In this document: positions 29,167 to 63,313 of the stretch, one piece after another | Position numbering within the stretch: position 1 is the stretch's first letter | Layout of the letters: every line of letters starts with the position of its first letter | From: Spirometra erinaceieuropaei | Taxonomy: Eukaryota > Platyhelminthes > Cestoda > Diphyllobothriidea > Diphyllobothriidae | NCBI GenBank assembly: GCA_902702965.1 | Contig: CACRXP010000032.1 | Coordinates: 1,983,461-2,047,460, forward strand | Length of the DNA: 64,000 nt | Direction of reading: 5' to 3' | Made by a program: the position numbers and the translations under genes | Notes under the pieces: generated by a model | The model's input: the letters and a program-made list of their open reading frames with translations, nothing else | Databases searched by the model: none | Told to the model about the DNA's origin: nothing

Positions 29167-30760
29167 TTAATTGTCTAGTTTCAATTCGAAAACCGAACGA
29201 TTGATTTCACAATGAACTGAACCTCCGTATAATCGATCCTGAGCCATTATATTTCGTCTGCCGTTTGTGTTTATGGAACCTCTGAGATAACTGGCCAAAC
29301 ACGACCGTGGCGAAAATGAAATATTTGATAATAGTTCAGGAAAATCAATCTTCGAAATTCCAGCTATGTCTGAACCATACTGCTCTGTATCCCAATTCGA
29401 AATCTTCAGCGTTGTCTTGATTGGAACTTCTTTTATTTTAAACGGATTCGAGAAGTCCTAAAGATGTTGAGAGCTTGACTGGATATACAATTGGTTACAA
29501 GTTATAACGATAATATTAGCCGAAGCAGTATTATTCCATTGTATAAGGATACTATGATAATGAGACATGTAGTTTACCCTATAGAATGAAAGTGAAACTT
29601 GGTCACATATATTTTCGCAGACATATTCTTCATATTTTTTGTACGTTGAGTTCGCAATTGGGAAACATGATTTAACCCAAATCCTGCCTTGTAGAATGAC
29701 ATTGTATGAACACATATACAGGTCCACAAGCTCGTCGGTCACTGTAAAGTGTGAAACGCGGTTCACTAGATATTTAACAATGTCCGTAATGCGAAATATC
29801 CCTTCATCCTTCGGACAGGATTTACGTCCTAAAACCAGTGTTTGTTTTAGTAAGCGTTTGGTTAAAGCAATTGGGAAAATACGGAATGCTCGACTGTTTC
29901 GTATCTCTCCCTTCTATACGAGTTCCATTCCTTTTTGTGATTAAACACCCTTAACATTTGCTCAAGTGTATCAAAAACAGACTGTTCTTCTTAGTGATCC
30001 TTCAGCACTTATGTCTACACATCTGAAAACTTGCAACTGTCCATTGTGACATTCGAAATCATGTGGCTTTGTCTCCTGCTGGTTTCTCGAGACTACGTGG
30101 CCGCCCTTTTGAGAAGGGGGATAGAATTGTGATGGAAATGTGGGCGACTGTACGACGTGTCCATTTTAAGATACAGTTAGACAAGTAAAAATGTGGTTGA
30201 ACCTTCGTCTAGCAGAGTTTGAAACAAGAAAGAAAACATGGTTATTCAGCCTACAGTCTCTAAAACATATATGCAGGCACGGGTCACTTTTAATAGAACA
30301 TAGTTTAAGTTCACTTACCAAATAGCACACCCTATTCGTACTTCACACTGAATCTATTTTTCTATGCCTAATTATCACGTTAACTGCAGGTATTTTTTTG
30401 ATTTAACTAGCAACATTTGTGCATCTGGAAATTACGTTTATGTTTAAACCCCGCAAATGAAAAACAAATAAGTATACGAAACAGGCTAGTATAGGATGCT
30501 GGTATGCCTCATTCCGAAATTGATGTGACCGATGTTTCGTTTGCTGTTACGTATCTGTTTAAACCATCCAGATGAAATTCATAATAGATAGTCTTATCTT
30601 GTGAGGACACCAGCTCATATTGGAAAGGCAACTTTTAGCGATTAATGAACTTACGGTTGAACGCAGCACACGCATTGCTCTCATAAATACACGCTAATAA
30701 TATTAGCAAGTATCTGCAGACGGCAGAATAGGATACGCAAGCCGACCTCTGCTTGGTCAT
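29167..30760 (-). CDS. Predicted secreted cysteine protein, paralog copy 1 (3 exons)
   Basis: Function unknown. Exon 1 (30760-30655) starts with ATG after a strong TTTTCTGGCTTTTCAG acceptor. It encodes a signal peptide (MTKQRS..., hydrophobic YLLILLACIY, small residues SNACA) and ends at a GTAAGT donor in phase 1. Exon 2 (29828-29578, 251 nt) follows TTTTAG, contains RKSCPKDEG and EEYVCENIC, and ends AGG|GTAAAC in phase 0. Exon 3 (29457-29167) follows TTTAG, contains LKISNWDTEQYGSDIAGIS and VHCEI, and adds 11 residues before TAA. The joined frame is 216 codons including stop, 215 aa. Exons 2 and 3 match copies at 45582-46185 and 62663-63313 in exact coding length and phase, which strongly supports these junctions. 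Joining exon 1 to exon 2 across an 826-bp intron rests only on splice signals and phase, and extra exons are possible. Invariant cysteines suggest an extracellular disulfide-bonded protein (inference). Confidence 0.55.
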
Positions 30761-32007
30761 CTGAAAAGCCAGAAAATGACATAAATTGGAGGCAAAAACA
30801 AAATATGTCAGCCTTAGGCCAATAAATCCTACAGCACAATGACAAGGGACTATCCAATCACATTGCCTTAGGGATGGATTCATAGGTTACCTAACCGTAC
30901 GTGTAATGCGCATAAGCGTCTGTTTCGCCTATGGGCTGATGTAGATTTTCTCATACCGTAGATTTTCTCAATGCCGTTGCCGCTACTTCGAACTGAATAA
31001 GACAACCTTATAAATACTTCGACTTAAATTTTTTCCGGCAGTGGATCTCTGAGGGTGATTTTTGCGTTCCTTTTGCTTGGGACCTGCAGCGCACAACCAG
31101 CAATCGCTTTTATCATAAACAAGCGAATAACCGACCGTAGAAACAATATAAAAGAAACTAAATTCTAGTGTCTTGTATTTGGCCCTACTATTCAGATAGT
31201 CAAGCACAATAAACATTTGCGTGTGGCATGCTCGGCGCGTGCAGTCCCCGTGATATGCACGTTTACTTTTAGAAGGCCAGTAAACTTAAAATTGACAGAT
31301 ATGTCCGGAGGACGACTATTTATTATTATCAGTGAAAAAAATCTCCAAAACGCGAAGCATTTTTCCAGTTCAGTTAAGGTTAAGTTATTAAGTAAACATA
31401 TCCCAAGCAATGTAACCCACGTTCAGAGAGCTAATGAGACTTTAAACCACGAACGTAAATTTCCTTCCTTTAACGCACGGTAAATGGCATTTTGTGTGGT
31501 AGATATCACAATTCAGGAAAGATATAAACAGCAGATTTAATAGCCTACATAGCATGCCTCATTTCTGCAGAATGAGGTCCGTGTGCCTTACGCGTCAGGT
31601 AGTGATTCAGGGCGTCGAATGCCATTACCAGGTTTTTGATCAATTGGTACACTGACGCACCAGAGTTCTGCTTCTGAAGGGAATTTATTCCCACAAATAA
31701 TACATTTCTCTTGAAAACTAGTTCCTATGCATAGCATTGGGCTCAGTGGATTGTCGACCAACGATTTAACTCATTCGCTTAAGTGTAACTCTTATGAGAC
31801 GCTTCATGTTCAATTACAGAGGATCATCACAGACAGATGTGCAAACCGCAAATGTAAATTTAAAATCTTACGTAAAACGCCTAGATGAGCAACGTTCTTG
31901 AGTTTTCCACAGCATTACCTGTGAGAGACTCGCATGTTTTCGGACCGCTGGGCACTGTCGGACTACAGGCACATTGAAGGCATCCGTATACAAGAGCTTT
32001 CTTGGTC
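30761..32007. other. Stretch without recognised genes
   Basis: This is the upstream side of the copy-1 gene, so its promoter or 5' UTR may lie here, but no element was identified. A short tandem GTAGATTTTCTCA pair lies at 30943-30975. Open frames at 31217-31483 (+) and 31192-31410 (-) overlap and have no motif. Confidence 0.35.
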
Positions 32008-32755
32008 TAACGTTTCGGATTCCTGTTCAAACCTATCATCAGAGACAATAGCAGATACGGGGGGTTCAAGCATACGGGGCAGCAGTATTTATGGGATAAT
32101 CGAACAATCATCACACCAACATCCAACACATGTGATTAAATTGCATCGAGTAACGACGATAAGTTCGGCCATCAAACAGACATCACCTCAAGTAGAACAA
32201 TCCCCGTTTCCGAACTGCAATACCTCCGATATTTATTCAAAGCCAATGGCTACCCGCGCAACTTCGTCAACCGGTGCATACGCAAAATGGACGAAAGGCC
32301 TAACCGCACGGACACAAAATCTTGGCGGGCGCTTCCGTATGCTAACAACGTTTCGGAAGCTGTCGGCCGCCTTTTTGCACCACTTGGGGCTGGAGTTGCA
32401 CACAGACCGGAGGCAACCATCAGGCGTCAGGTAACGAAACCGAAAGACCCACTGCCACGGCTAGAAACGTCTGGAGTCCTTTATCCGATCCGGTGCAGTT
32501 GCAGACAAAGCAACTGCGTCAAAGAAACCGGAAGACAGCTCCGAACGAGGATGGCCGAACGCGCTGCAGCGGTGCGGAGAAATGAAGCCAGCTCTCAAGT
32601 TTCGGCTCATTCGACAAGATCCGGCCACACATTCAAATTCGAAGAGGCCAAAATACTAGCAAGAAATGACAACCGCCTGAGCCGGGAGCTACTTGAATCA
32701 TGGTTTTCTGCCCCAGTCCATTAACATGTGCAATTAACTTTACCATTTAAGAAAA
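32008..32755 (+). mobile_element. Penelope-like element, 5'-truncated (+), with inverted tail at its 5' side
   Basis: The open frame from 32212 to 32724 encodes the end of the RT domain (YLRYLFKANGYPRNFVNRC), the linker NVSEAVGRLFAPLG, HRPEATIRRQVTKPKDPL, and a GIY-YIG domain (GVLYPIRCSCRQSNCVKETG, then RQLRTRMAERAAAVRR, SRELLESWF). The YIG-type triplet reads Cys-Val-Lys, so the nuclease is probably inactive. Upstream, 32008-32105 is the PLE terminal region in reverse, including TCATCAGAGAC and ACGTTTCGG, and 32120-32165 resembles another piece of the 3' tail in forward orientation. The 3' tail after 32755 is lost. Confidence 0.7.
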
Positions 32756-32889
32756 TGTAAGGGCCACAGGTTGGCGGTACGTATTGTGTGCGAAACCCAG
32801 GATTGTCCTTCTAGTCGCTGTCGAAGGCAGGACAATTGTTTACTGCACCCAGTCGCGCTCGAGAATTCCGGAGTAAGTGGTGACGGCTG

Positions 32890-35190
32890 GCATTTATTTC
32901 GTCCACCGGTGTCGATCGAGGCAGTGGTGGCTTGAAGTCGCGTGCAAGCAGTAGCAGTGCTTCAAAAAAGGCCTGCTGTTTCCTCGCAAATCCTGCAGTG
33001 TTCGATCAGGGGCCTCGAGCACTTTTTTGCGCCATTGTGCAATCATCCCAAACAATAGGTTTGCATTTCTGCAGTACTTTTCCCATGCCGGATGCTTTGG
33101 AAATGGTACACGCGGGAGTTTCAATGAATTGCTCGTTCAAAGGCAATTTCGAAACTGAATGAACGGGTTTTCTGCCAGGTAGCAGAGTTGCAGCTATTCC
33201 GGGATGCAAGTGCTAGGGCTATGTCATTTATGGGATCGAATTGCCGTCAGAATCGGTCGTTGTAGGAACGTTTTGCCAGTCCCTCATGTTGCATCTAGGA
33301 AGAAGGTTCTTCCAACCCCGTTACTGACATTCCGCAGTATTTGATCGTAAATGTCATTCTGCTCCAGTCTTGGTTTGTGAATGTTTGACTGCAAGCATGG
33401 CAGAAGTTGATCCGTATTTAATTTTGCTCATGGCGCCAATCCACATCTAACGAAGCAGCAGAAGATTGGGTTTGCGGTGACATTCCCAGTTGATTAAAAA
33501 CTTTGTTCGCGATTTCTGCGTGCATATCCTCAATCAATATTAACGCCTAGTTGTAGATTCCTGCTGTGCAAGCCACATTTGAATTTTTCATGCATAGTTG
33601 ACGGAAGATATATTTAGCCATGTGCGATTTATATTTCTCCCGTAAAACTGTTGGAGATGAAGGAGAGAATGCGGTCAATATGACTGCAAACAAGTCATGA
33701 ATTTGTTGTGGATGGGACGTGTTGCAGGCGTCATTAATACATACGTCCCACTGTTGATCGTTCTCCAGTAACTGAAGAGCCCGACACGCACTGCTGAATG
33801 TGGCATGCATGGCGCCGTTGACAGATTTCAACTGACGGATAGAGGTTGGAAGTGGCACATTCGTCAACACCATGCGAAGTAAGATTGGGATGCACGCTGT
33901 GCAGTCTGCCTAGCGCAGTCCTTTGAACATGCCGGGGTGTCCGTCCACTCGCTCTTTTCGTTTGCGTTGTTCGGATGAATTTCTACACACACTCCCTGTG
34001 TTATACGTAGACACTTTCGAATTCGGTAGTGTTTTCGCAAACGCGTCAGTTTGGCTTAAGGTAGAGAACACAGTAAATGTTGTTGCCGGTGGACCTAAGG
34101 CAACCTGTTGCATATTTGCATCTGTAAAGTAAACGCATTGCCCATTCTCTAACTCTACTGCAAGTGAACAACACCTGGACTTCGCTCATGGATGGGGAAT
34201 GAAAGTATCCGCCACACGGCTGTGTTGCTGTTGACGCATCTTCGAGCACAATACTGTGCGATTTCATCGAGTTGTATGTCCGCAACCCCTTCTCTCCTTT
34301 CGTGTTGCGGGCCGAAAACGGCCCTCTCGCTGCCTTTATTCACGTACTTACAAATGTACCTAATTCTTTTCCCGGAAATGCAGTTTTTCACGTTCATCTT
34401 AACTTCCTTTGCTTCTAAAAGCGAAGGCGAATACGGGACAACCCAGCGGTTACCGGCTTGTATGTCACCGATTCGCATTCGCATGGTGGCCAACTTGCCG
34501 ACGTCTTCCGCTGATCGTGTTGGGTATAGGGGACTTCCGTCGTTACCGGTAACTGTGTTGCATGCAAATGCCCGAGGATATCTCTGAGAGCATTTTCCGT
34601 CGGTCATGCCGGGGGGTGGGAGGGGTGGGGGAGAATTGGGATTCAGTGCACCTCAATGTTCATGCATCATATTCTTCGACACAACTTCATGCAAATCATA
34701 TTCGACGTCGGCGTCACGTAATTCAGCGCATATTGCATCGTCGATTGCGTTGGAAGTGATCCTGTTATAGATCCAGATCAATACATGTGCCTGGGGCAGT
34801 CCTCTCTTTTGCCGTTCCAGCTAACACATCCAGCGGCGCACAGACCCAACCAACTCGTGTTTCACCATGAAGTTCATTAGCGATTGCAGTTTCTTCCTGA
34901 TAACACATGCTGTAATGTCCTTCCTATTCACCGGCAATAGCCCTGGATGTAAGAGCTGATAAATATCCCGCCCTAACTGAATTGCACGTGAATGTAATGA
35001 ATAGGTCTGGACGCCCGTACTGACAAACATAAGCAATTGCACCTCGAGCGTACCCGAGCATATGGCGTGGACTCTCTGTGCATGTGGACGACAAAAGCGT
35101 TAGTCTTACAACGCTATCTGCATTACCGTCGTTTACAACTGCATCCTTTGTTTTAATGTCAGCATTGGTGTTAAGGCCCAACATTGTGTC
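32890..35190 (-). pseudogene. Helitron RepHel transposase, degenerate
   Basis: A Helitron transposase nicks and joins DNA by rolling circle (HUH Rep domain) and unwinds it (Pif1-like helicase). Minus-strand order: GRPDLFITFTCN (near 35010), KRGLPQAHVLIW (about 34805-34765), CSQRYPRAFACNTVTGNDG (from about 34595), NRWVVPYSPSLL, RYICKYVNKGSERAVFGP, QLDEIAQYCARR, a middle block VNGAMHATFSSACRALQLLE (near 33810), EDMHAEIANKVFNQLGMSPQ (near 33500), the helicase Walker A remnant GTGKTFLQRPI (near 33290), GIAATLLPGRKPVHS, and Walker B-like IVWDDCTMAQK (near 33030). Frames shift repeatedly. The HUH His-x-His reads Gln-Ala-His, and a TGA stands directly before the GTGKT of Walker A. The helicase C-terminal half is missing. 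Confidence 0.75.
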
Positions 35191-35199
35191 AATTTCTGC

Positions 35200-35858
35200 T
35201 ACTTCCTGCCTTTTCAGGAAAATCCCATGGGGCGCGGAAAAATACTTTGACTTTTCCCAAAGCCTTGCCTACCGCGCTTACTGCACCTGCGACAACCGGA
35301 TTGGCAGACGTTCTTTGGTCGATACTGGTGCGCATTTGCGTGTCATCCCTCCCACGACAGCCTACCGTTTATCCCGCAGCCCTGACCTATTTTCCCTGGA
35401 TGCCAACGCTACCTTCGGTTGCTGTTCTCTGTCTCTGGACATCGATCTCCGGCGTCCGTTTCCTCGGTCGTCGCCGTTGCTGATGTCTCATGTAGCATTC
35501 TTGATGCGGATTACCTTGTAGCAGAGAGTCAGGTAACTAAAATATTGTCGCTTCTCATCTTCTGGCGGACTGCCAACACTTAAATCTAAACGTCCAGACT
35601 ATCCGTCCCACTGTCCAGGGTATCCCGTTCTCTGCAGTGACCACTACTTTGCCATCCTAGGCCCTGACCATTATTGTCCATTTCGGCAGCTCCACACCGA
35701 ATACACTGGCTTCACCTTTTCCATTTTCAGCAGCTCCACTCACCCACTTGACGATGTTCATCATGTCCGCACAACTGGCCCTCCTGTGTTTTCTCGGCCT
35801 CTCCGTCTTGCGCCTGCAAGTCCAGCTGCCGTCAAGATCGAGATGTAAAGGAGAAATT
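35200..35858 (+). pseudogene. Ty3/gypsy pol fragment (protease to start of RT)
   Basis: The frame carries an aspartic protease with intact active site (GRRSLVDTGAHLRVIPPTTA, DTGA near 35320) and the following SLSLDIDLRRPFPRS block. After a frame change come the linker HHVRTTGPPVFSRPLRLAPA (about 35760-35825) and ASPAAVKIEM, which lead into RT in Ty3/gypsy Pol. It stops before the RT catalytic core where a minus-strand LINE fragment begins. No LTR, integrase or gag was recognised next to it. Confidence 0.7.
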
Positions 35859-36939: not shown

Positions 36940-37480
36940 TCTTCGAAAATAAGATGGAGGCGGGGTTTTGTTTCCCGACTGGAAACCAGCCAACGGAAAC
37001 CTCATATACAAACGAGAAGGGGAAGCCTCACCAAACGTTTTCAGTCCAGCGAGTCCTACAAGCTTTTGTTGTAAATTAAGAAAGAGAATAACACAAACGG
37101 AGCTAATGGGCATATTGGGGAAAAAAACCTGCTTCACTCGCGTCACCATGGATTCAAGAGCGGTAGATCGTGTCTCGCCAGGTTATTCACATTCATGAGA
37201 AGCTGGATGGAATATTTAGAAATATGTTCGTCAGTAGATACAGTCTACGTTGACTTCGATGAAGCCCTCGACAGGGTTTTCCACAAACGGGTATTACCTA
37301 AGCAGTGTTAAATGGGTGTAACTGGCAACCTACTCAAATGGCTGGCAGACTTTATCACGGGCAGATATCTGCGTGATTGTATTGGTGATGCAAAAATAGA
37401 GCGGGTAACCGTTCAAAGTGGGGTTCCGCAGGGAAGCGTTCTAATTTTCATTCTGCTTTCGATATATGCGAACTAGTGGT
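36940..37480 (+). pseudogene. LINE reverse transcriptase fragment (+)
   Basis: Blocks in changing frames: FPDWKPANGNLIYKREGEAS (near 36970), HGFKSGRSCLARLFTF (about 37145-37195), motif A-type VYVDFDEALDRVFHKRVLP (about 37245-37300), LLKWLADFITGRYL, and motif B-type VQSGVPQGSVL (near 37415-37450). This is the order of a CR1/Jockey-like LINE RT. The YADD motif region is missing. Confidence 0.65.
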
Positions 37481-40660: not shown

Positions 40661-43284
40661 TGCCGGCAGTGTCGACGACCAGTGAGAGAATTGACGAGTT
40701 GTGCGTTTTGCCATAACGGTGGATCCGAAGATGTTGGACTAATTCAATTGGTATTCTGAACTTCGGTTGCAAATGCGCAGTGTCAGGTGTTCGGTGCATT
40801 CAACATGGATCCGTCATATACGAAACTTATGCGACATTATGTTCCCTTTTGCCTCTTTTACGTAATATGCCTTGTAGACGGCGGTTCCAGTTCTCGTGGC
40901 AGTAAGCCAACCCGGTCGGCTCAGAACAATTTTATCCAAGGTCCAAGGGTTAATTTGTGTACGGATAGGGGGCATCTGTAAACTGTCCTTGTAGCAGCCC
41001 TATTGGCCGCCTTGTCTGCCAGCATCCGTAGCAATGTCCCTGGTGAATACTTGTTTGAACACGGGATTGTTAACCAGTCCAGTCACGTGGCATCGTCGTC
41101 GCAGTTGCATCTGCCTTGGCGTGGACACTGAGGATTGGGTTCCTTTCACGGACTTCCACATCGAGCAACCTGTATTTCTGAAGAGGCCTCGTTCATGTTA
41201 ACTATCTAGGAACGTTGGTGGAACCAGAGATATATGCATCTCGGCTTTTGCGTTAGAGCGAAGGTCTTGGCAACTCTAATGAGAGCGTAGCAACCGGCCG
41301 AAGGTCTGCCAAGACCTGGAAGATCACACTTGGGACATTGTTGTCAGGCTTAATATTTCTTAAAGCGGGACTGTTCAGTTAAAGGTATTTGTTAAGAGAT
41401 ACGAGGCAAGTTTCATCTGCACTGATTCCGAGGGTGCTGTACTCACGATATGGAGCTAGTAGGGTTTGGGAATGTCCAGATGGGGGTAAACTAAAAGGCT
41501 TAGTAGGCTGATTTATGCAAGCGATGACAGTGACGAACGTGGTCAAACAGTCCGTCTGCGCGTGTTACACACGCCTTGTCTGCGTACGGTGGATCAGTGT
41601 TCTACAGAAACACGAAAAGGTGATTCGAATCATAAAGGTCATAATAAAAGGAACCAATAGCAGCCAGATTCCCCGTCCTGCCAGGAGGACACATTTCAGA
41701 ATTTTGGCTAACATTTATTAAGACAATACACTTAGACGGTTTATCCTCCGGACGCATGTTTTCAGACATCAGGCGACTGTCAAGTGCCTGACCTCATCAA
41801 ATGACCAGACAAGTTATCTACACAAGTTGACGTTGGCGTTAATTTTAAAAGAAAAAACGAGAGGCATTGTCTGGGGGGCAAGCTCTAGCTTCCAACCACA
41901 TGGTGTTTCAAATGTAATCAAGCGTGGGTGAACTACAAGGAGTTAATCTGGCTAGAGCGTCCTACTTAACAGAAAAATTATATGAACTTCTTTATGCAAG
42001 CTGGCAATATTGAGTGGCGCATTGGTTTTCGACGCAAGCCATTATATCTGAAGTCATGTGGAAAGTCATGTGCATTTTGTGCTAAAGTTTGCTGATGATG
42101 CACAGGTTGGAATTAAACCATCCCGTATTGTATCTATTGGGCATTCCGTTGCATTATTCAACCACGGCAAACCTAAAATTATTCTGCTGAAATTATCCTG
42201 CTGTAGAAAACATTGCATGCGCTCACTTTTCACTAACAAGTGCGTGTTAATTGGCAATATATCATATTCAAATATCCCTGTACGTTTCAAGTCAGTCTAA
42301 AACGTCATACAAATTGTCAAACGCAACATCGAAAATGAATGTAAGAGTTGTTTTTTACTGAAGCAGTGCATGGTTGTTGTGACGTGATTTCGTGATTACT
42401 ACTTCTGTCAAGTCAATTACTTATTTATTTTCGTAACCGAATATTGGTCATCTTTATTAGGAAATGCACAGTCTTATATTGACAGCACCTAACCCGGCGT
42501 TTTTCAACCCACACGCAAAACAGGCGCATGCGTTATTTGCGGTATCTGTTTGACTCTTCACGATCCATCTATAGAGGATTCGGTGCTTTATCATAACTCA
42601 TTTATCAAAGCGCACAACAGGGCAGACTACATCTCCACACTCAGTTAATAATGGACTGCTAGAAACTCATATGCCCTTGCGGTTTATCCCCAACATCTTT
42701 TCAATCATAATAATTTAATGCACATTAATAATATTAAAACTAATGTCTAACATAAGTTCTCATGCAGAAAGTACAAGCCTCATTTAAACGTTGCGAATTC
42801 TTGATAATGTTTATGTCCATAGCTAAGGCGCTTCATGAACAGTGTAAAAAACGTTTTCCAATTTTAGTCTAAAACTTTTACACACCTAACAGTAGACCAG
42901 ATATATTGAAGCCAAAATGATGTTGTTTGTATTCTTAGTAGGCCAATGTAGAAATTTGGATGCAAACCTAGTTGCACTCAAGCATAGTTTCGGAAATTAC
43001 GGAATTGATTCCGCACTTTCCTTCTTCGACTGCATCGTAATGAAATACTTTTCTGTTACTGCGATAGGCGTCTTAAAATAATGTTAATCTAAATGCATAA
43101 GTCAGTATAGGTCAGTATATTTTAAGGGTAATAGGCAATGCCATTGAAAGCCCTATCGAGAACGGAACATGCAATATCTATCTTTAAATAAACATGGTAC
43201 AAAAATGTTGTCAGTGACATACACACTTTAAAAGAACATTTTTATTGAAAATGCAGGACCGAAAATCGAGAACATTCAGTTGTA
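40661..43284. other. Stretch without recognised genes
   Basis: Mostly AT-rich. A weak LINE-like peptide (RYMHLGFCVRAKVLATLMRA) can be read near 41230-41290 (+), but no further homology supports it. Confidence 0.35.
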
Positions 43285-45581: not shown

Positions 45582-46185
45582 AAAGCATCACATGCCATCA
45601 AAGTGGAGGATCGCTCCGTATCTGGGAGATCGCGGAACAATTAATAAGGCGCATCCCAACGATTTCTGTCCAGGAAAAAAACGCCAGATCCGGACGAATT
45701 TCCTACAATGTGACTCCACAAGAACCTTTTCTCATCCACAATTGCCTAAACAGCCGACGTTTGGGTTTGCTTTGTTTTATGGAATATCAGTGTGACGCCA
45801 AATTTGAAACCGTCTTACTATACTTCAATAGGGTAGCTTTTTCCTCAGAATATAATTTACACGTAATAGGATACATGATCACATCTCCGTGTGTAATACT
45901 TAGGCCAAATTACCTCTCCAATTTTAGTATCCGAAAAGGACAATACCAGTAAATGGAACACAATTTCGAATAACACTCCGGGCGTTTCTTTGGAATGCCG
46001 AAGGGGTCAGTCAACGGGGAATAGCCATTTCCAATATTGAAATGCCGCGCTTCTCGAACGCTATCGCAAGTTTGCTGCGAAATGAGCGACGGAACAGTGA
46101 ATCAGTACAATCTCTTAAAAGTGCATGGAATCCGCAACAGTTGTTGGTTTCAATTAAGAATATGAACGTTCACTGCAATATTTAA
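45582..46185 (+). CDS. Unknown cysteine protein, paralog copy 3 (2 exons seen)
   Basis: Function unknown. Exon B (45582-45832, 251 nt) follows TTTTATAG, begins with two bases completing a codon, then SITCHQSGGSLRIWEIAEQL, SYNV, NCLNSR, FMEYQC, and ends AGG|GTAGCT in phase 0. A 95-bp intron ends CTCCAATTTTAG. Exon C (45928-46185) encodes 85 residues and TAA: TIPVNGTQFRITLRAFLW, GIAISNIEMPRFSNA, and the end NVHCNI. Both exons match the coding length and phase of copies 1 and 2 with no gaps. Over exon B all three share Cys4, Gly9, Arg12, Ile16, Leu20, Arg23, Val29, Ser40-Tyr41, Cys54, Tyr68, Cys70 and Phe81. No stops or shifts interrupt it although nearby elements are decayed. The first exon is not identified. 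Confidence 0.55.
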
Positions 46186-47159: not shown

Positions 47160-48186
47160 TGGTTAGTCAAGCTTTGACCACGGTAAACGCGGAGCCTGAA
47201 CGAGGTTCTTCTGGGCGCATAGGGTCGGTTTTCATAACCTGATGGCGGCCGCTTCTGCTGCTGCTAACAGGCGCTGGCCCAGTATCTTAGGGTAGATCGA
47301 GGGAACCTTATAAATCAGGCGAAATGTTTCAGCGGTGTCCACACGATGCCCTGAATCCACTGCATGCGCAAGGAGGGCGCTGTCTCTTCTCCTAATTTCA
47401 TCTTTTTCCAGCCATGCGGGAAGCTGTTCACGTATTCTTCTGGAGAGGCGCCGAATTGTACGACCAACCTAACCTGCTCCCTGGGAGCGAGCTAATGCGT
47501 AGATTCAAATTGAGATGGTCTGAAGTGGCAGCTTATCATTGCCTTCTACGCGTAAAATAGAGTTAGTAGAGAATGATATTCGAACCCTTGCAGCTGGAAA
47601 GGTGCCCGAGACAGTTTGGTCAAGGCGCCTTCTTAGGAGTTCACTTGTAGTGTCACCTTGGGAAGGGACTTTGAGGAACAACTCTTTCTTTTCGGCGGTC
47701 AGTGTGGTGGGTTTTGCGGGTCGTGCGGAAAGGTCCTTTGCAATGAACCTGTCAGGATACCCGTTTTTGCGAAGCAAGTCCTTGATTTTTCTAAGTTTCT
47801 CCTCGATACTATCTGTTGAACAAGTTTTTCCAGCTCTTTGCGCCAAACACCTGACTAGATTTCGTTTTTGTTGGAGAGGTACGAAGCTAACGAAGTTCGT
47901 GTATTGTCCAGACCAGGTTTTCGTCCGATAGACGCTCCTTCGGATGCTACCGTTAGATCTCCTGTTTAGAAGGACATCTAAGAAAGGAAGCCAACCGGCC
48001 GATTCCATCTCCAACGCGAGTTTGATCGAGGGTTGTGCTCTATTCACAGCATTTATGAGGGCAGCAACGTCGGTTTCTCTGGTGGCAATCGCAAAGATAT
48101 CATCAACGTGGCGACCGTAATGTTTGGGTTTTTCGATCTGATTGCTTAGTTGTAATTTTTCGAGATTGCACATCAAGAATAAAAGT
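47160..48186 (-). pseudogene. Penelope-like element RT/GIY-YIG part (-)
   Basis: The open frame 48176-47505 carries the catalytic segment KHYGRHVDDIFAIA, PFLDVLLNRRSNGSIRR, YRTKTWSGQYTNFVSFVPL and the linker RKNGYPDRF. After a frame break, 47470-47250 encodes GRTIRRLSRRIREQLPAWLE, DSALLAHAVDSGHRVDTAET and LAAAEAAAIRL, the GIY-YIG end. The sequence resembles the 6.6-9.45 kb PLE but is clearly distinct, so it is another lineage. Everything upstream of the catalytic motif is cut off at 48186, where a plus-strand LINE starts. Confidence 0.7.
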
Positions 48187-49719: not shown

Positions 49720-52535
49720 TATTATTGGATGCCAGGTCTGTTAAAACCAAGGTGGCCCGAATCAGAGCCATTGCTCTCGAAATGATGCCTGATATTATAT
49801 GTGTAACAGAGTCTTGGACCCAATCTCTAATTCCTGACTCTGCCCTTCTGATAGGTGACTTCGATTTTTACCGTTAAGACCGCAAGACTAGGCGTGGAGG
49901 CCGTTGTTTTCATCATTTTAGATTCTACCAAAAGCACTGTCCCTATTACTTGGATATTTCCTCATTCACGGAAAACTTCTGCTTTGCATCTGCTATTCTC
50001 TCGCCGCAAAGAAAGGCGATTATCGGTTGTATTTACAATCCCCCCAAAATTCTTCATTCATTGATGATTCACAACTCTGTTAAATCTTTAAATTAATTTC
50101 GGAAGCTGCTTTCGATTTTAAAATAATAACTGGGGATTTTAACCTTCCTGAAATAGACTGGGTTTCCTATAGCTGTCCATATAGATTCCAATCCTTTCAA
50201 GATATTGTCAACTTTCCTAAATGGTCCTAACTGGTGCGCTCTCCAACATGAGATAATCACATTTTAGATCTAATATTTACCAAGGACATTGTCCCTCTTT
50301 CTGTTGCTTTCAAAAAGGGCCTCAATGATTGTGACCACGCATTAATTCATTGTTGCTTACCGCTTGCCTTTTCAAATAAGACCAGCACCGTGCGGACTTA
50401 CCTAGACTACGATCGTGTAGATAACGACTTAATATATAACTATATTAGATCATTGGATTGGTGTGGCCTCCTTTCCTTTAGCGAGCAACCATTCTTCGTG
50501 ATGTCCTGTCCAATGTTTCCAAGGGCATCCTAGAGTTTGTGCCGCGTGGAGATCTCAAGCCTGATTCTTTAAATTCCATTGTTTCTCATTTTCTCCACAA
50601 CAGACTAAAAAAGTTTAGAAGGCAGCTGCGTAACCTATCTGCTACTTCCTTATCCGTTCATCTTAGAATCACAATGATTTTTAAAATGGCCTCAAGGGTA
50701 GGCCAATCGCGCGGCAGCCAAACAGAATCACCTGCCCCCAGTGATTCGAACCCTAGCAAATCCGTCAATTACATCTTCCGTCATTGGCCCTCCTCTAAGC
50801 GTGGTCACGAACTTCCACCCCTGCTAGATGATGGCAAAGTTTTACTCATCGATGACACTGACAAGGCGGAGTTGTTTAGTGCTTTGTATGCAAAACACGT
50901 GAATACTGAGTCCAAACCAGTCCCTTTCTTTCGTTCACTTTCAGATAGGACATTGAGTACAGTCGATATCTACTCAGATCTCATTAAGAAATGCATAAGT
51001 CGTTTGAAATACTCATACTGCCCAGGAACTGGCGCGATTCCAATTTCGATTATTAAACAAGCGTCCGACTTTCCCATATTGCTTAGTCATTTATTTTCGG
51101 TTAAAATTTCAAAAGGATTCTTTGCTGAAACATGGAAAACGTCAAGTATCATTCTCGTCTTCAAGTCAGGATCTCGGTTTGATGTTAACACCTATCGGGG
51201 CGTGCACAAAACACCGTCTTTAGCAAAGCTTCTTGGAAGGCTAATTTTGAATGAAATGTTTGATTTCTGCCTAGCTAATTGGATTCTGAGCTCCAGTCAG
51301 CACGGATTTTTGCGTGAACGATCCTGTGAAACTTGCCATTTGGCATTTCTTAATCTAATAACTTCTCTGCGTAATGAGCAGCAGTCAGCGGTAGTTACCT
51401 ACTTTGATCTTCGCAAAGCCTTCGACAAGGCGCCCTATAGACGTCTTTTAGTAAAATTAAAAGCTCTGGGCATCCGGCCGCCTCTACTCGACTTCATCAT
51501 GTCCTATCTGTCCAACCGATATCAGAAAGTCATGGTCGGTAATAGCTACTCGACACCCCACTCGATCACGAGTGGCGTACTTAAAGGGACGGTTCTGGGT
51601 CCGTTACTCTTCCTTCCTTACTGAACTGGGAAATTTGCTAACTCTTGTTTATGCCGATGACCTCAAGTGTGTTTACTCATATTCTAAGGACACCGCAAAC
51701 GTTTGTGTTAAAAATATAAATGTCGATTTACTGCGCTTAAGCAGATGAGGTTCAACATGGCAGAGTAAGTTTTCATCATCAAAGTGTATTTTTATGTGTT
51801 TTGGTCCTGCCAATCATCCTGGTTCCATAATTTTCCAAAATAACCCACTCTCAGAATGGTTTACCATAAGGGCCCTAAGTCCAAGTTCTACAAATAAAAT
51901 TGCTTTATCACCTCATGCAGATAGAATCTCTGCCAAAGCCACGCAGATATGTCGATTCATATGGCAGTTTTTTTCTTCCGGAAATGAAGCTAAGACTTTA
52001 TTTATGCTTGTTCTTCCAGTCCTTGAATACTGTTGTTTTTTCTTTGGTTTAATGAACGCTGTGACTGTTATAAGACGGAAAATGTTCGGAGGGTTTTCAC
52101 CCGGGAATTGTTCTCTCAAGTCGCACCCGGCACTTCTTGTACTCACAGATGTCAGCTGACGAACTTTAAGTTTTTGTGGGTTGGAAGACTCGAAGCTGGC
52201 CTTTGCTTCCTTTTCGCATTAACTCTAGCTCCAATCTTTTGCTCATGGACTCTGTCACACCAGGAGATCGATCTTATGCCACGGGCAAATACTCCATGGT
52301 GATTCCACCGCCTCTTTGCACTACATATAAGCGCTCCCTTTTCTTTGCTTCCAAATATGCCTTCCTTTGGAATAATCTAACGCCTGAAATTAGATTATCG
52401 CCTACGTTACTGGTATTCAAGTCGAAATTACGCACACACCCAACACCGGAAAGTATAAGGGCACTTTTAGCGGTCTCATTTTCGAACGCTCATCTTCCTG
52501 ACTTCGAGAAGGGTACTCCTGGGATTAAGAGGTAG
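49720..52535 (+). pseudogene. LINE ORF2 (endonuclease and reverse transcriptase), degenerate
   Basis: The N-terminal APE endonuclease shows LLDARSVKTKVARIRAIALE, PDIICVTESW, GCIYNPPK, the catalytic-type ITGDFNLPEIDW (near 50130) and the NDCDHALIH block that replaces SDH (near 50325). The best preserved RT stretch is 50539-51624: FAETWKTSSIILVFKSGS, QHGFLRERSCETCHLAFL, motif A YFDLRKAFDKAPYRRLL, motif B TSGVLKGTVLGPLLF. Motif C, VYADDLKCVYSY, follows in another frame at about 51648. The tail ends SLFFASKYAFLWNNLTPEI (near 52340-52390). Many stops and frame changes; not functional. Confidence 0.75.
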
Positions 52536-53255
52536 ATGAAGTGGAAACCCTCAATTATTTCATTAGAAACCCATGTTTTGAATTGCTTGCTAAATCCACT
52601 GTCATCACTTCTCCCTCATAGCGACAATTTTCGCGGTTTTTGATGTCATCTCCCGCATTCCGACCTCATGCGGTCTGTGGACACTCACGGCGGAACCCTC
52701 AGTATTCGCCGTCTACAAGTAGTTTGGCCGTACCTTCATTCCTCATTCCTCGGCTGGACTGGAAGCGGACTGTGGCCGATCGCGTCTGGGTTCCTCTCGT
52801 CTAGCCGCCTTGACGCGAATAGTCTCATCCGGCATATCAATTCCGCCCTGACTATGTCCGTTCTAAATCCCGTATACAATACTACACGCAGACCAGCCCT
52901 ATCCAACCCGCATACGTACCCTTCAAGGCTGACATTTATTTCTGCCCTGACGAAGTCCGATTATAATCCGTAATATACCGCCACATGCACGCCAGTCCTG
53001 CCCGCTTTTTTGTGTAATTATGAGCGCGGTTTTTTTCCTGTAAAATTAATCCAACCCTTTTTAAAATTTTTAAGTGGAGTTTTTTCGCCACTCCTTAATC
53101 ATTTTCTAACTGACTACAAATTCAGAAACCATGAATTGCATTTTGTACAGATTTCGCCTACCTCGTCTTAAATTCGTATGTAAATTTTTTTACTTGCTTT
53201 GATGGGACCCCGACTGGTCTTTAATAAAAATTATATATTTATTTATTAAGACGTC

Positions 53256-53750
53256 GGCTAAGTGAGGTCCCAGAGGCGAGGCAACACGGTCGAAGTAGAC
53301 TGCTAAATACCTTGCTTTTGAGTGTGCCTATTGTGAGACAAAATAACGATGGGTCAACCTCAAACTCCCTCTCCATGCTCAGCGTCTAGCGACGGCATGT
53401 TAAGTTCAGTTCAGGCCTAAGCATTATTCACGGAGATGTGATCATGCATCCTATTACGTAAAAATTATATTCAGTGGAAAAAATTACCCGGCCGAAGGTT
53501 ACTAAGACGGTTTCAAATATGGCGTCACACTAGTATTCTATACCAGACTTTCAGAGTTGAGTGTAGGTACAGTAGCCTTCCAAAAATCGCGACCCATTTA
53601 CGGTCACCGCATTCTATCTGCCCCTAGTCTCACTCATGTTCGGTTCAGTGCAGTTTATTGAAGGAAATAGGCGTAAGCCTTTGAGTACCGTATTTACAAC
53701 GCAAAACTGCGTGCGGTGCACAGAGAAATTATCTGAGTTAAATAATTCAA
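53256..53750. other. Spacer after the LINE 3' end
   Basis: No recognised gene or repeat. Confidence 0.35.
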
Positions 53751-54484: not shown

Positions 54485-55480
54485 GATAATTTTTTATTAA
54501 AGACCCGTCTGGGTCCCACCAAAGCCAGTTAAAATTAATTTACATGCGAGTTTTAGACAAGGCAGGCCGAATCTTTACAAAATGCAATTCAAAGTTTCTG
54601 AATTAGTAGTCCATTGAGCAACATGATGATTAAGGGGTGAAAAAAGCTCCATACAAAAAGTTAAAAATGATTGGATTAATTTTACAGGAGAAAAAAACCC
54701 CTCAATAAAAATAATGACAGATAAAAAGAGAGCAGGACTGGCCTGTAGGTGGCGGTATATAACGGATTGTTGTCGGTCATCGTCAGCGTAGCAATAAATC
54801 TCAGCCTTGAGGGGTACGTATGCGGGTCAGACAGGACTGGCCTGAATGTGGCATTGTATACGGGATTCACAATTGACATCTTCTGAGCCAGATTGATACG
54901 CCGCATGCGACTATTCGCGTCAAAGAGGCCAGACGAGAGGAACCCAGATGCGATCGGCCACAGCACGCTTCCAGCTCAGCCGAGCAGTGGGGAAGGGTGG
55001 TACGACCAAACTGCAAGTAGACGGTGAATACTGAGGGTTCTGCCGTGAGCGTCGACATACCGCATGAGGTCGGAATGCGGAAGATGACATCAAAAACCGC
55101 GAAAATTGTCGTTATGGGGGAGGAGTGATTGCAGTGGATTTAGAAACCAATTCAAAACAGGGGTTTCTAGTGATATAATTAAGAGTTACTACTTAATCTA
55201 CCACTAAATCCCATGAGGACCCTTCGCGAAGTCAAAAATCTGAGTTTTCGGGAATGAGACCGTTAACATTGTGTTTATGCTTTCCGGTGTAAGACGTTTG
55301 CGTACTTCGACTTGAATACCAGTAACGTAGGCGATAATCTAATTTCAGGCGGAAGATCATTCCAAAGGAAGGCATATTTGGAAGCAAAGAAGAGGGAGAG
55401 TATGCAACATTTACCAACGTTGAACCGCAGGAGCCCACGGTTTGACCAACCTTCCAACTGATTTAGATTCATCCACAGTC
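54485..55480 (-). mobile_element. 3' end of the large LINE family, minus copy
   Basis: The 3' untranslated region 54490-55110 is the reverse complement of 52640-53240 with moderate divergence, including its GGACCCCGACTGGTCTTTAATAAA-like end. The coding tail (SLFFASKYAFLWNDLPPEIR, LSPTLLVFKSK) at about 55300-55400 matches 52335-52430. Just upstream lies NQLEGWSNRGLLRFNVGKC, a segment normally found about 250 residues earlier, so the copy has a large internal deletion or is a fusion. Confidence 0.65.
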
Positions 55481-58199: not shown

Positions 58200-58385
58200 G
58201 GGTTTTGTTTTCGTCGAACTTCAGCTGATGTCAACGTTCACATGAAGGCTTCGTGACTTGGCACTTGATGTCTTTCCCTCCTAACAGGTTTGCGCTTTCT
58301 GCCATCTCGCAGGTTATTCGCTACGCTTAAAACTGCACTGGATCCGGTGTAACTCTCGATTTTCTCTACATCGGGAGGGTGTCTT
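58200..58385. repeat. Diverged repeat pair, member 1
   Basis: Similar in order to 60240-60425: GGTTTTGTTTTCGTCGAACTT against GGTTTCAGTTTCGTTGAACTT, a TTGACATCA/TTGATGTCT unit, and TAACTCTCGATTTTCTCTA against AAACTCCCGATTTCCTCTA. No coding content. Confidence 0.45.
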
Positions 58386-58849
58386 TTGACTGCGGCACTG
58401 GTGTTCAGATTGTCCTATCAATCCGTGTGCAATCCTTACTTCGAATAACGCGAGAATAAGCGAATTGCTTTCGGCACGTTCTGGATAAGCGGAGGCATTT
58501 GGCAAAGTGTGCGTCAAATGTGTGCTGACTTTTGGCCTTTGTATGTCTGCATTGACGTTATTATGCCTGCGGCTTTTGTCATAACTGCATGTGATTGCGC
58601 GCGCGCCATATTGCTACACAGTTTTGGTCATTGCGCAGTAAACCATGAGCCTTTCCTGTCTGTTTTGGGCAATGTAGGGGTAAAGTATTAAATAACGATA
58701 AAATGGAACGCCCTAACCCGTTTACCTAATGCTGTGGCCACAAAGAACGGTCTGACCAAATACTCACGTACGAAGCTGCATCTGATTAGTCAGCGGCATT
58801 GGTGTTTCTTTTAATGACTCGATCACATGTAGAGCATATGTGTTATCTC

Positions 58850-59290
58850 ATAACCAAAATTATAAAACGCGTTTTCGATTCAAAGTTTGCTCAAGTGGAG
58901 ATGTAATATTAATTGTCAAAATATTAAAGTTACTCCAGGATGCCGGTATTTGAAAGGGGTTCTCTTCAGCCATCTGCAAAAACTACACCTCTCAAAAATG
59001 AACTACTTTAGTTACATGGATTTTTCCCATTGATGCTTGATGCCTTTGTAAATTCAAAGGTGTTTTGTAGAAAACATACACCAAAATATTCGCTGGTTTG
59101 CTCATTTCATACTTATTTACGCTCCCTTTAAATCATATAAGGCAAAAAAAATATTTTTCGGTTTTAGAAAAATTCTCAATTTCCGAATAATTTTTGAACC
59201 AACCCGTCTGAGTCCCTGGTTGACCTCTTTCTGCATTCTTCAGGACTTGTCTACATGCTAAAGGTATCCGGTTAAGGATGATGCTGACAT
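58850..59290. mobile_element. Palindromic MITE family, left-arm fragment
   Basis: Matches the left arm of copies A and D (GCGTTTTCGATTC, CAGGATGCCGG, the TGATGCTTGATGCC unit, CCGAATAATTTTTGAACC) but lacks its terminus and the right arm. Confidence 0.55.
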
Positions 59291-59359
59291 ATTTGTTAGA
59301 TTCACGACGTTAAAGTCTGGTTTTTCTGTAAGAATACGACTGCCTTATTTACGGCAGTA

Positions 59360-59910
59360 CAGTGAGTGACCGATCTCATGAAATGTTGGCCGAAATACTG
59401 AAATGCGTATTCGATTTGGAAGGATTACTTAGGCGCGGTTGTGATATTGATTAGCATGCGGCATAATCAACTAATGTTTCGGACTCGCCAGGATGTTGAC
59501 TTTTGAATGCACATTTTTTGATCTCATACAGAAACCACACTCGGCAAAAAATGACTTCTTCATTGGCAGGGATTTTTCGCATTGATTTTCGATGGCGTTA
59601 TAAATTCAAATATATTTTATAGAAAAAATGCACAAAAATATGCTTTCTTCTACTGAATTGGTGGTAAGTCACGTTGACTTTACATTTTATGCTTGAAGAC
59701 AGAACACACTTAGATTTTAGTAAAGTTTTCCAATTCCCGAATAATTTTAAGCCAGATCAGCCTTTGCATTAGCGTTTAGCGATTTAATTCTACAAGGCGC
59801 ATGCTTTCCGTTTAAGGAAAATAATTTGTTCCTCTATGCCTTTAAAGAGATACCATTCAGAGTTAATGAAATTTTACAGTGAGTGCTGACTATGTTATAC
59901 ATTTCATGAG
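59360..59910. mobile_element. Palindromic MITE subfamily 2, left arm
   Basis: Begins CAGTGAGTGACCGATCTCAT after TA at 59358-59359, then the family arm (ATGAAATGTTGGCC, GGACTCGCCAGGATGT, GCAAAAAATGACTTC). The same subfamily start is at 61390. Right arm absent. Confidence 0.55.
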
Positions 59911-60239
59911 GAGCAATGGTAAACAGACAGGTACGATGCCGTATGAATGTTCACTGCACCGTCTTAACGAACGTATAATAAAAAACTTCCTTAAAATCTA
60001 AATATACCCTATCTTACTTGATTTAATTGACAAGATCTGAGTCCCGATCCCCCAAAGCAAATACAGAGAGCTCAAACACAAGCAGTTTGTTGAAGGTATG
60101 ATTAAGCTAAGATAGGATAAGCATTGTGGTCTTAAATTGCCAGTCTTGTGGTCATTTATTTGTCAAACATCGGCGGCGTTGGTGTGGGGCCAACTCATCG
60201 CAGCAAAGGCAGGGCTTGAATCAGACAACATCTTATTCC

Positions 60240-60425
60240 GGAGGTTTCAGTTTCGTTGAACTTGAGCATGCGTTGACGTCCCCATGAGGGCGTTGCGATT
60301 TGACATTTGACATCATTCTTCCATGCCAGGTAGTCGCGTTCTGCCTTTTTGCGATATTGTCCTTGCTCAACACTACATCCGACTCGGTAAAACTCCCGAT
60401 TTCCTCTAACGGACCGAAGGGAATA
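60240..60425. repeat. Diverged repeat pair, member 2
   Basis: Partner of 58200-58385; same order of conserved blocks, non-coding. Confidence 0.45.
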
Positions 60426-60485
60426 TAGTAGAAATTTTCATATATCCGTCAAGCGTCTCGGTTTTCTCACTAATGTAACACAAAA

Positions 60486-61330
60486 CAGCAGGTAGGCTAA
60501 CTCATGAAATGTCAACCAAAATTCCGAAATACCTTTTGGTTTCAAAAAGATTAATTAAGTAGGGTTGTAAAAATAATCATCGTCCATCATTATTCTGTAA
60601 TGATCCAGTTACATCAGGGTGCCCTCTGTCGAACTAACTTCCTTTCGACTGCATTCAAAAACTACTCTGCAAAAATGACACTTATGGAGCATGCATTTTT
60701 CTCTTTGATTTTCGATGCCCCTAAAAGCCCGATTATGGTTCATGGAAAAATACCTAAGAATTTTCATTCTTTTGCTCATTCGGTAGATAATTACGTCTTC
60801 TTCTAATTTTATACTTGAAGAAGGGAAATAATTCGGTTTTAAAGAAGTTTCTATTTGTGGGACTTTTAAATACCGTGAAATGACCGTTCATAAATCGAAA
60901 TGTGTCTGCATTTACCAATGTGGCTTGCGAAGTTAACAATATTGATCAAATCCACTGATTAATTTATGAAGTCCATATGGTCTCGTCTTAATACCGTAGA
61001 GAAATTTGAGGTTTTCCGTACGCGAAAAATATACGGCTTGTAGTTTGGAGACCATGAATCCAAGTGTAACGGTAGAGTGGGTTCAAAGTTATTCGGGAAT
61101 TGGAAAATCTTTTAATAGCGAATTATGTCCCTTCTTTTGAGTATGAGGGAGGAGAGCACAAAATTGGAAGTAGACATAACTGTCTACCGAATGAGCAAAA
61201 GATTGAATATTTTTATGCAGGACTTTTATGGGCATCGAAAATCAGTGAGAAAAATTGATGCTACATAAGAAGTCATATTTTACAGAGCGTAGTTTTTGCA
61301 TGCAACCGGTAGGAAGTTCATGACCTTCAT
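60486..61330. mobile_element. Palindromic MITE family, copy lacking its right end
   Basis: Starts CAGCAGGTAGGCTAACTCAT. The left arm runs to about 60860 and the reversed right arm from about 60890. The right terminus is replaced near 61330 by the start of another family member. Confidence 0.6.
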
Positions 61331-61384
61331 GAACGTTTATGATGTTAAAGTCTGGTTTTTTGTAAAAATGCAGCTGCCTTCTTT

Positions 61385-61672
61385 ACAGCAGTGCAGTGAG
61401 TTACCGATATCATGAAATGTTGGCCAACATTCCGAAATGTGCTTTCGATTTGGAAGGATTACTTAGGTGTGGTTGTAGTGCTTATTATCTTGCAGCATAA
61501 TCCACTAATGTTTCGGACTTGCCAGGATGTCGGCTTTTGAATACACTTCTTTTTGTTCTTCTGCAGTAACCACGGCCGGCAAAAAATGACTACTTAATTA
61601 TCAGGGATTTTTCGCATTGATTTTTGATGGTCTTATAAATTAAAATACACTTTAAAGAAAACATGCACAAAG
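61385..61672. mobile_element. Palindromic MITE subfamily 2, left arm
   Basis: Starts CAGTGAGTTACCGATATCAT; matches 59360-59650. It is cut off by the PLE that begins near 61673. Confidence 0.55.
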
Positions 61673-62485
61673 GGGACGCCCCTCACCAACCCATGGCCTC
61701 ACTCAGTGGTACTCTAACTTACGGACTGGCAAAATGGCTGTTTCGGCGCCAAAATGTCCGACCGCAAATTCAAATACTACAGTCGGTTCGTCAACACAAT
61801 TCTTGGAGAAATTTAAAGTGGTAAACCTCCTGCAAAGCAAGGTCATGGTATTCTCTGATATCACGTTCATTTTTGCTTCTATTTCGCAGTACGCGACAGT
61901 CGAGACCATCGAAGCACTTATACGAGACAAATACAATGAGACGCAGATTCACCCTAGGTATGCCCAAATATAAAAAGTTCTGAAGTTCCGTCTCAAGACG
62001 TATTTTACGTTTGACCAAACAATCTACGGGCAGGCGAAGGGCACGCCAATGGGTTCGCCGATTTCGGGATTCACAGTCAAGGCGGTCCTACAACGGTTGG
62101 AGTCGCTGGTTTTCCAACATCACAAACTGAAATTCTGGGCTCGGCGTGCAGATGATACCTTCGTCGTCATCGAACGGGATCAGGTGCTGGAATTCAAAGA
62201 ACGCCTAAACGCCGTCTTCCCGAATATTCAATTTACGATGGAGGAAAAGGAAAACAACCAGCTAGACTTTCTTGATGTCTTCGTCTGCCGCAAAGATTGT
62301 AGTGGCTTAAAAACCGAAATTTTCAGGAATGCAACAAAGGCAGCGCAAGTACTGGGCTACAACAGCAAACACCCAATCATTCACAAACGCAGTTTCATAA
62401 GGGCGCTATGCCAGCGACAATTACTGACAAGGCATTATAAAATATTAAGATGTCGGCGACCGTTTGCGGTGAAATAAAAAACATG
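61673..62485 (+). pseudogene. Penelope-like reverse transcriptase fragment (+)
   Basis: Blocks in order: the TYGLAKWLFRR-type start (near 61715), SNTTVGSSTQFLEKFKVVNL, MVFSDITFIFASISQYATVE (motif A region), LKFRLKTYFTFDQTIYGQAK, GTPMGSPISGF (from 62040), LESLVFQHHKLKFWARRADD with the catalytic DD (near 62155), LDFLDVFVCRKDCSGLKTEI and HKRSFIRALCQR. The usual Tyr-Val-Asp-Asp core reads Arg-Ala-Asp-Asp. It differs in sequence from the 6.6-9.45 kb and 47.2-48.2 kb PLEs, so a third lineage is present. Both ends are truncated. Confidence 0.7.
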
Positions 62486-62662
62486 TAACTACTTGGATGG
62501 AGTCATTGGCGAATAGATGATATCGTTGAACTAACACATGCATTGCTTTATCGCAGTAGATAGTGGTCATTTAGAATTTCAATTTCCTGTTACTCTGCGC
62601 GCAACCGTTTGTGATTATCCTTCTTCATGTTTTCTTTCCCACGTTGAGCCACATCCGTTTTG

Positions 62663-63313
62663 TCAGATTTCGCAATGGATTCCGCTGCCATACATTTCTT
62701 TTAGCACCAATTGGACCGTCCTCATTGTTGAATTTCTTGGAAAAGGCCGATACCGTCTTTCCTTGCCCTCGAGATATTTATCTATGACAGGCATAATCAA
62801 TGGGGGCATCAGGTTTGAAATTCCTGCGATATTTGGACCCCGCTCTCTTGTATTCCAATTAGAAATTTTGATCGTTGCCAGTAGCGGGAATCTCTTTACT
62901 GGCATCTCATTCAAATCTATCTAAATTAGGAAAAAACATTACTAAACAGTAACTTTACATATTATGCAAACACGTGGCAAACAGAGATGGTTATTTGCAT
63001 TTTATGAACCATCTTCAGTAGATCAAAATCTTAACAAGTGCTGTACAAGAAAAAACAACCACCTGCTTAAATTTGATCAAAATGTTATGCAAGACAATTG
63101 TGCAGTTGTATTTTTCACGGTGGAAACTCGTCCCCTCGTGTTGGAACTGACAGTCATGTATTTTCTGTTTGTCCGGAAAATTGATGCCGTAGGAAAGAAT
63201 TTCCGACTGAAAGGTCTCTTCTTGAACATCTATACGTTTAACCCGACTGACAAGGTGTTCAGCAATCTTCAGGTTTCTACTTAGGCCGTTGTCGCGAGGA
63301 CACATGTTATTTC
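62663..63313 (-). CDS. Unknown cysteine protein, paralog copy 2 (2 exons seen)
   Basis: Function unknown. Exon B (63313-63063, 251 nt) follows TTATTTTAAG and begins two bases into a codon, then NNMCPRDNGLSRN, KIAEHLVSRV, SYGINF, HDCQFQHE and EKYNC, ending CAG|GTGGTT in phase 0. A 142-bp intron ends TTTTTTCCTAATTTAG. Exon C (62920-62663) encodes 85 residues and TGA: IDLNEMPVKRFPLLATIKIS, NWNTRERGPNIAGIS and the end GSGIHCEI. Coding length and phase equal copies 1 and 3. Its only cysteines are the four that all copies share (exon B residues 4, 54, 70; exon C residue 83). The first exon would lie upstream, beyond the PLE that starts near 63600, or outside the window. The opposite strand is also open here, but only this strand has matching splice sites and paralogs. 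Confidence 0.55.

What the first reader, a model, noticed from the sequence alone, without database searches (positions are those of the whole stretch)
29167..63313. Unrecognised three-member gene family with exactly conserved exon lengths and phases
Three loci (29828-29167 on -, 45582-46185 on +, 63313-62663 on -) encode proteins with no family I recognise. In all three the internal exon is exactly 251 nt, enters in phase 1 and leaves in phase 0. The last exon codes for exactly 85 residues up to HC(E/N)I. Introns differ in size (120, 95, 142 bp). The 83 complete codons of exon B and the 85 residues of exon C align with no gaps at low identity. Invariant residues are C4, G9, R12, I16, L20, R23, V29, S40, Y41, C54, Y68, C70, F81 in exon B and T16, W22, I34, S35, H82, C83, I85 in exon C. 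Frames stay open while neighbouring elements are full of stops, which suggests selection on the protein.
Basis: partly seen in the sequence, partly recalled or inferred. Interest (0 to 1): 0.85.

Follow-up and report, generated by a model that had tools for sequence, protein, structure and literature searches.

The report
Huge family of tapeworm secreted proteins
The three look-alike genes belong to an unrecognised family with some two hundred or more copies in one tapeworm genome, apparently encoding small secreted proteins that may work at the boundary between parasite and host.

Summary
The loci are homologous. A fourth copy (exon B 17449-17714, minus strand) has a broken last exon, and 53414-53542 is a relic. 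The three strongest phase-1 signal-peptide exons of the window lie upstream of L4, L1 and L2 on their strands (3 seen, 0.27 expected; cut-off chosen afterwards). The genome (758.7 Mb, a diphyllobothriidean tapeworm by its retroelements) gives 80 and 135 matches at E <= 0.01 to two types of last exon and 150 scored matches to exon B. All 26 type I models have a 251-nt exon B. On contig C32 the genes recur in tandem units of about 145 kb. pN/pS among open copies is 0.28-0.46. Pfam, NCBIfam, PDB and two searches of 5.8 billion proteins show no relative. Four cysteines are conserved. One low-confidence fold model (pLDDT 59) resembles tubular lipid-binding (TULIP) and cystatin-like proteins, neither significantly. 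Best reading: a lineage-restricted secreted family, probably host-facing, possibly lipid-carrying. Family well supported; secretion predicted; function inferred.

The parts
30655..30760 (-). L1 exon A: predicted signal peptide (35 codons + 1 nt, phase 1 donor ACC|GTAAGT), 826 nt upstream of exon B
   Evidence: the same exon stands upstream of 4 other L1-type copies in the genome
29578..29828 (-). L1 exon B, 251 nt, phase 1 in, phase 0 out
29167..29457 (-). L1 exon C (type I), 96 codons + stop; 85 residues to HCEI
40805..40901 (+). L2 exon A candidate: signal peptide, donor GCA|GTAAGC, 4,680-nt intron
   Evidence: weaker than L1 and L4 because of the distance, and no copy of it was checked elsewhere
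45582..45832 (+). L2 exon B, 251 nt
45928..46185 (+). L2 exon C (type I), 85 codons + stop
63063..63313 (-). L3 exon B, 251 nt
62663..62920 (-). L3 exon C (type I), 85 codons + stop; 95-98% identical copies on C32 at 117-175 kb intervals
18165..18249 (-). L4 exon A: predicted signal peptide (28 codons + 1 nt), 450 nt upstream of exon B
   Evidence: similar exons upstream of other L4-type loci
17449..17714 (-). L4 exon B, 266 nt (5 extra codons at the start), same phases, cysteine spacing 50/16 kept
15330..15601 (-). L4 exon C (type II), broken: two reading frames and a stop; open copies exist elsewhere in the genome
   Evidence: domain E 4e-10 and 1.9e-12 for the two pieces
53414..53542 (-). 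relic: 129 nt, 84% identical to the end of L2 exon B plus part of its intron, with a stop in the exon part

Best explanation
The loci are members of a very large, lineage-restricted family of secreted proteins in a diphyllobothriidean tapeworm. Where all parts were seen, a gene has an exon for a signal peptide, an exon B of 251 or 254 nt (266 in the L4 type) and a last exon C of one of two types. Mature proteins of about 165-185 residues carry four conserved cysteines (two probable disulfides) and sites for N-glycosylation. The family grew by duplication of multi-gene segments and decays by birth and death, while open copies are held by purifying selection. I infer that the proteins are released or displayed at the worm surface. 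The mechanism I think most likely, at about 0.3, is carriage of lipids or other hydrophobic ligands in a TULIP-like helix/sheet/helix roll. Shown here: family, gene structure, predicted signal exons, selection, arrays. Inferred: secretion into the host, ligand class, fold.
Confidence: 0.6

Rival explanations
1. Secreted cystatin-like proteins: one helix against a sheet, acting as protease inhibitors or binders at the host interface.
Confidence: 0.15
2. The family is the known cestode GP50 / plerocercoid-immunosuppressive factor (P-ISF) family or another secreted orthogroup already counted in Spirometra or Sparganum.
For: Both are secreted and expanded in cestodes. Sparganum proliferum has further unnamed secreted orthogroups (OG0003096 and others; PMC8166898 section 12).
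Against: P-ISF is described as cysteine-rich (PMC8166898 passage), whereas only four cysteines are conserved here. GP50 is reported as apparently absent from S. erinaceieuropaei (PMC4265353 passage). Two searches of a database that holds proteins of both species found no relative (species shown), though that search can miss distant relatives. The sequences were not compared directly.
Confidence: 0.15
3. The segments belong to a transposon or viral ORF.
For: The window holds retroelements. Short imperfect inverted repeats lie around each locus; one pair (19 nt, 84%) brackets exons B and C of L2.
Against: Spliced genes with predicted signal exons, recurring in the same order within large units. 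The inverted repeats differ between loci, and the only DNA match between family loci in the window is L2 with its relic. No relative in viral contigs. Target-site duplications were not looked for.
Confidence: 0.02
4. Mostly dead duplicates: the window copies are pseudogenes of a family whose live members are elsewhere.
For: L4 exon C is broken, the L2-like relic is dead, and 3 of the 30 best type I matches hold a stop.
Against: L1, L2 and L3 exons B and C are open with splice sites in place, and pN/pS is 0.28-0.46 among open copies.
Confidence: 0.08

Closest known systems
TULIP superfamily (BPI/LBP, Takeout/JHBP, group 7 mite allergens such as Der p 7)
   Same: In the one usable fold model: helix, antiparallel strands, helix, short last strand. 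TULIP-type chains fill 10 of the top 20 Foldseek rows, none significant.
   Different: No sequence similarity in Pfam or PDB scans. Shorter and more numerous strands, four conserved cysteines, low model confidence; unrelated folds score as well by VIA-align.
Cystatin fold
   Different: Only about half of the protein matches; no cystatin family hit.
GP50 / P-ISF secreted family of cestodes
   Same: An expanded, secreted cestode family (PMC8166898).
   Different: P-ISF is called cysteine-rich; here four cysteines. Not compared by sequence.
Antigen B / HLBP and FABP lipid-binding families of flatworms
   Same: A possible role in taking up host lipids; the PMC3439653 abstract (listing) says flatworms cannot make their own lipids.
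   Different: HLBPs are small helical proteins (recalled). Antigen B is reported as apparently absent from S. erinaceieuropaei (PMC4265353 passage).

Membership tests
TULIP superfamily | Six antiparallel elements, helix + four-element beta meander + helix, rolled into a tube (PMC5507252 passage) | tested here: inconclusive
TULIP superfamily | Sequence match to a TULIP family | tested here: inconclusive
   None in scans of 3, 12 and 7 members at E <= 10; the review notes that fold similarity between TULIP families was shown by structure, not by PSI-BLAST (PMC5507252 passage)
TULIP superfamily | Binds a hydrophobic ligand | not testable with these tools
   needs protein
Cystatin family | Sequence match to a cystatin family | tested here: not met
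   none
Cystatin family | Cystatin fold | tested here: inconclusive
GP50 / P-ISF | Sequence similarity to GP50 or P-ISF | not tested
   No GP50 or P-ISF sequence was in hand
GP50 / P-ISF | Cysteine-rich secreted glycoprotein | tested here: inconclusive
   Signal exons and N-glycosylation sites predicted, but only four cysteines conserved
Transposon ORF | Transposase, RT or integrase domain in the family proteins | tested here: not met
   None in Pfam scans of 3, 12 and 7 members
Transposon ORF | Element ends common to the copies | tested here: inconclusive
   Only short imperfect inverted repeats that differ between loci; target-site duplications not looked for

The most novel reading that the evidence does not exclude
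A secreted lipid-carrier family of more than two hundred gene copies, with a TULIP-like roll not recognisable by sequence, built by repeated duplication of multi-gene segments in diphyllobothriidean tapeworms, where it does the host-lipid scavenging or host-signal masking that antigen B-type proteins do in other tapeworms.
Probability: 0.2. Interest if true: 0.8.

Novelty: new variant of a known kind. Interest (0 to 1): 0.62.

Why it matters
Expanded secreted families are where parasites meet their hosts, and Spirometra, of this order, is reported to lack the classical antigen families of taeniids (PMC4265353 passage). A family with some two hundred or more copies and no curated name is likely to be among the larger ones of this genome. 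It would give candidates for diagnosis, immune modulation or lipid uptake, and its tandem units offer a natural experiment in birth-and-death evolution.

Tried and rejected
Pfam, NCBIfam and PDB profile scans gave only chance-level matches: DUF900, SH2 of PLC-gamma, Cep120, TMEM132, cyanovirin. Two protein-database searches gave nothing: 565 and 12 candidates, none at E <= 1 and E <= 10. The method needs shared 5-letter words and uses at most 100 of them, so this is not proof of absence; a control with a retroelement ORF showed that Spirometra and Sparganum proteins are in that database. Phage and viral collections gave nothing. A first AlphaFold model on L1 was useless. No similarity was found between the two exon C types by hhalign. 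A search for the L4 last exon with the type I profile failed because it is type II. Foldseek families not listed are not excluded. The literature was searched; none of the listings seen names this family, but subscription papers and supplements were not searched. Papers: passages of PMC8166898 (plus all of section 12), PMC4265353, PMC8400842, PMC12471100 and PMC5507252; PMC3439653 only as an abstract in a listing.

A direct comparison with GP50/P-ISF sequences could not be made. How many copies the L2 type has in the genome did not complete.

Full report
Observation. Exon B is 251 nt at 29828-29578 (-), 45582-45832 (+) and 63313-63063 (-), entered in phase 1 and left in phase 0; introns are 120, 95 and 142 nt with GT..AG ends. 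Exon C aligns without gaps over 85 residues to HC(E/N)I. Every pairwise ungapped score exceeds 20,000 shuffles. A profile of the other members finds each left-out B exon at E 2.1e-5 to 2.9e-12 among the 2191 open frames of 20 or more codons in the window, and each left-out C exon at E 0.009 to 4.1e-10. Identity is well above chance at codon positions 1 and 2 and nearer to it at position 3, as expected when protein is conserved and DNA is not.

More in the window. The B profile found a fourth exon at 17449-17714 (-), E 2e-5, with the same phases and cysteine spacing and five extra codons. A 129-nt relic at 53414-53542 (-) is 84% identical to the end of exon B of L2 plus its intron and carries a stop. 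First exons: across both strands, three open stretches start with ATG, have a strongly hydrophobic stretch (mean hydropathy about 3.0 or more over 9 residues) and end in phase 1 at a GT[AG]AG donor. They lie 450 nt upstream of L4, 826 nt upstream of L1 and 4,680 nt upstream of L2, each on the gene's own strand; 60 simulated windows average 0.27, at most 2. The cut-off was set after seeing the hits; at 2.2 there are 5 against 2.5 expected, phase 0 has none and phase 2 has three, one of them above 3.0. L3 has only 687 nt upstream in the window and none was found there. In the genome, of 30 loci found with L4's exon B (L031 is L4 itself, L039 and L040 are two pieces of one gene), 16 have such a phase-1 exon (cut-off 2.4) and none has one in phase 0 or 2; of 26 type I models 6 have one within the fetched stretch of about 1.1 kb, namely five L1-type copies (one the window's own) and L022.

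The genome. A Penelope-type ORF of the window matches Sparganum proliferum and Spirometra erinaceieuropaei best (63% over 99% of the query; 82-83% over 53-54%). The genome has 758.7 Mb in 1932 contigs, within the 539-796 Mb quoted for Diphyllobothriidea (PMC12471100 passage). I therefore call it a diphyllobothriidean tapeworm without naming a species. The exon C of L3 finds 101 matches, 80 of them at E <= 0.01. The exon B of L4 finds 326 candidates, of which 150 were scored, all E <= 0.07. A type II exon C finds 150 scored of 169 candidates, 135 at E <= 0.01. Matches are places, not genes: some are pieces of one exon and some hold stops. The places do not coincide by eye. The tool states that such counts are lower bounds for large families.

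Gene structure is rigid. Of 30 type I loci, 26 could be modelled and every one has a 251-nt exon B, with introns of 44-186 nt. The rule chooses the nearest in-phase sites, so it leans toward 251, but the sites must exist. Of the 30 loci found with L4's exon B, 25 gave a model: 16 have 254 nt, 4 have 266 nt, and 5 are doubtful automatic choices. Exon C comes in two types: KISNW..GxNIxGIS..HCEI (type I, with a variant ending VHCKI next to its own exon B on C42 and C48) and NVSAVAEF..W+..IL..LA..TC (type II). These show no detectable similarity to each other (hhalign), yet both end with one conserved cysteine, giving four in all. The alignments are of chosen rows; L010 lacks the first cysteine and L034 the second. 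L4 is type II; its exon C at 15330-15601 is broken by a shift of frame and a stop, while copies on C32 and C70 are open.

Arrays. On contig C32 the L3-type exon C recurs at 1,324,068, 1,475,774, 1,609,985, 1,726,490, 1,901,651, 2,046,126 (the window) and 2,193,312, 117-175 kb apart. Three other types recur in the same order between them, with some units lacking one type; L2-type copies were not mapped. The last match lies 5.4 kb from the end of the contig. So the window shows one repeat of a multi-gene tandem duplication. Contigs C70 and C94 hold related clusters.

Selection. Pooled pairwise pN/pS over exons B+C is 0.44 (7 L3-type copies, 21 pairs), 0.28 (5 L1-type copies, 10 pairs), and 0.45, 0.33, 0.46 and 0.36 in four other groups. 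In the two largest groups pS (.037.056) is of the size of intron (.043.038) and flank (.033-.068) divergence. Pairs are not independent, no formal test was made, and copies with stops or without a full model were left out, which favours low ratios. The direction is the same in all six groups: purifying selection on the open copies.

How it most likely works. Shown: a large spliced family, predicted signal peptides for several types, four conserved cysteines, potential N-glycosylation sites, purifying selection, segmental arrays. Inferred: the proteins are secreted into the host interface. Flatworms are said not to synthesise their own lipids (PMC3439653 abstract, listing), and antigen B, EG95 and GP50 were reported as apparently absent from Spirometra erinaceieuropaei (PMC4265353 passages). 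A secreted family with a roll-like fold could therefore serve lipid capture; immune modulation is the other obvious role, as reported for P-ISF (PMC8166898 passages). I give the lipid-carrier reading about 0.3.

Novelty. Unnamed secreted orthogroups expanded in Sparganum proliferum are on record (PMC8166898 section 12), and I could not test whether one of them is this family. In the searches made no listing describes it. The kind, an expanded secreted family of a parasitic worm, is known. The family, its rigid exon plan with two last-exon types, and its size appear to be new as far as those searches reach.

Noticed in passing
6916-8034 (-): Penelope-like retroelement ORF, best relatives in Sparganum proliferum and Spirometra erinaceieuropaei; similar fragments at 47505-48185 (-) and 61974-62477 (+) are recognised by eye only.
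   Followed up: partly
50482-51624 (+): Reverse transcriptase (PF00078, E 4e-12). Downstream, 52334-53234 recurs inverted at 54486-55398 (82%), so the L2 relic lies between the two copies.
   Followed up: no
97-1088, 15874-16859, 60485-61308: Related elements of about 0.8-1 kb with internal inverted repeats, 70-77% identical to each other.
   Followed up: no
34155-34652 (-): Frame that reads like a Helitron helicase-like fragment (recognised from memory; no Pfam match).
   Followed up: no
37032-37149 (-) and 20799-20874 (-): Two further, weaker signal-peptide-like stretches with phase-1 donors but no exon B directly behind them; possibly first exons left from lost copies, or chance.
   Followed up: no
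genome contig C52:1130760-1131002 (-): Family type II exon C match (E 1.5e-8) inside an open frame of 3580 codons.
   Followed up: no
genome contig C32, ends at 2,218,610: The array runs to within 5.4 kb of the contig end, so it is probably longer than assembled.
   Followed up: no
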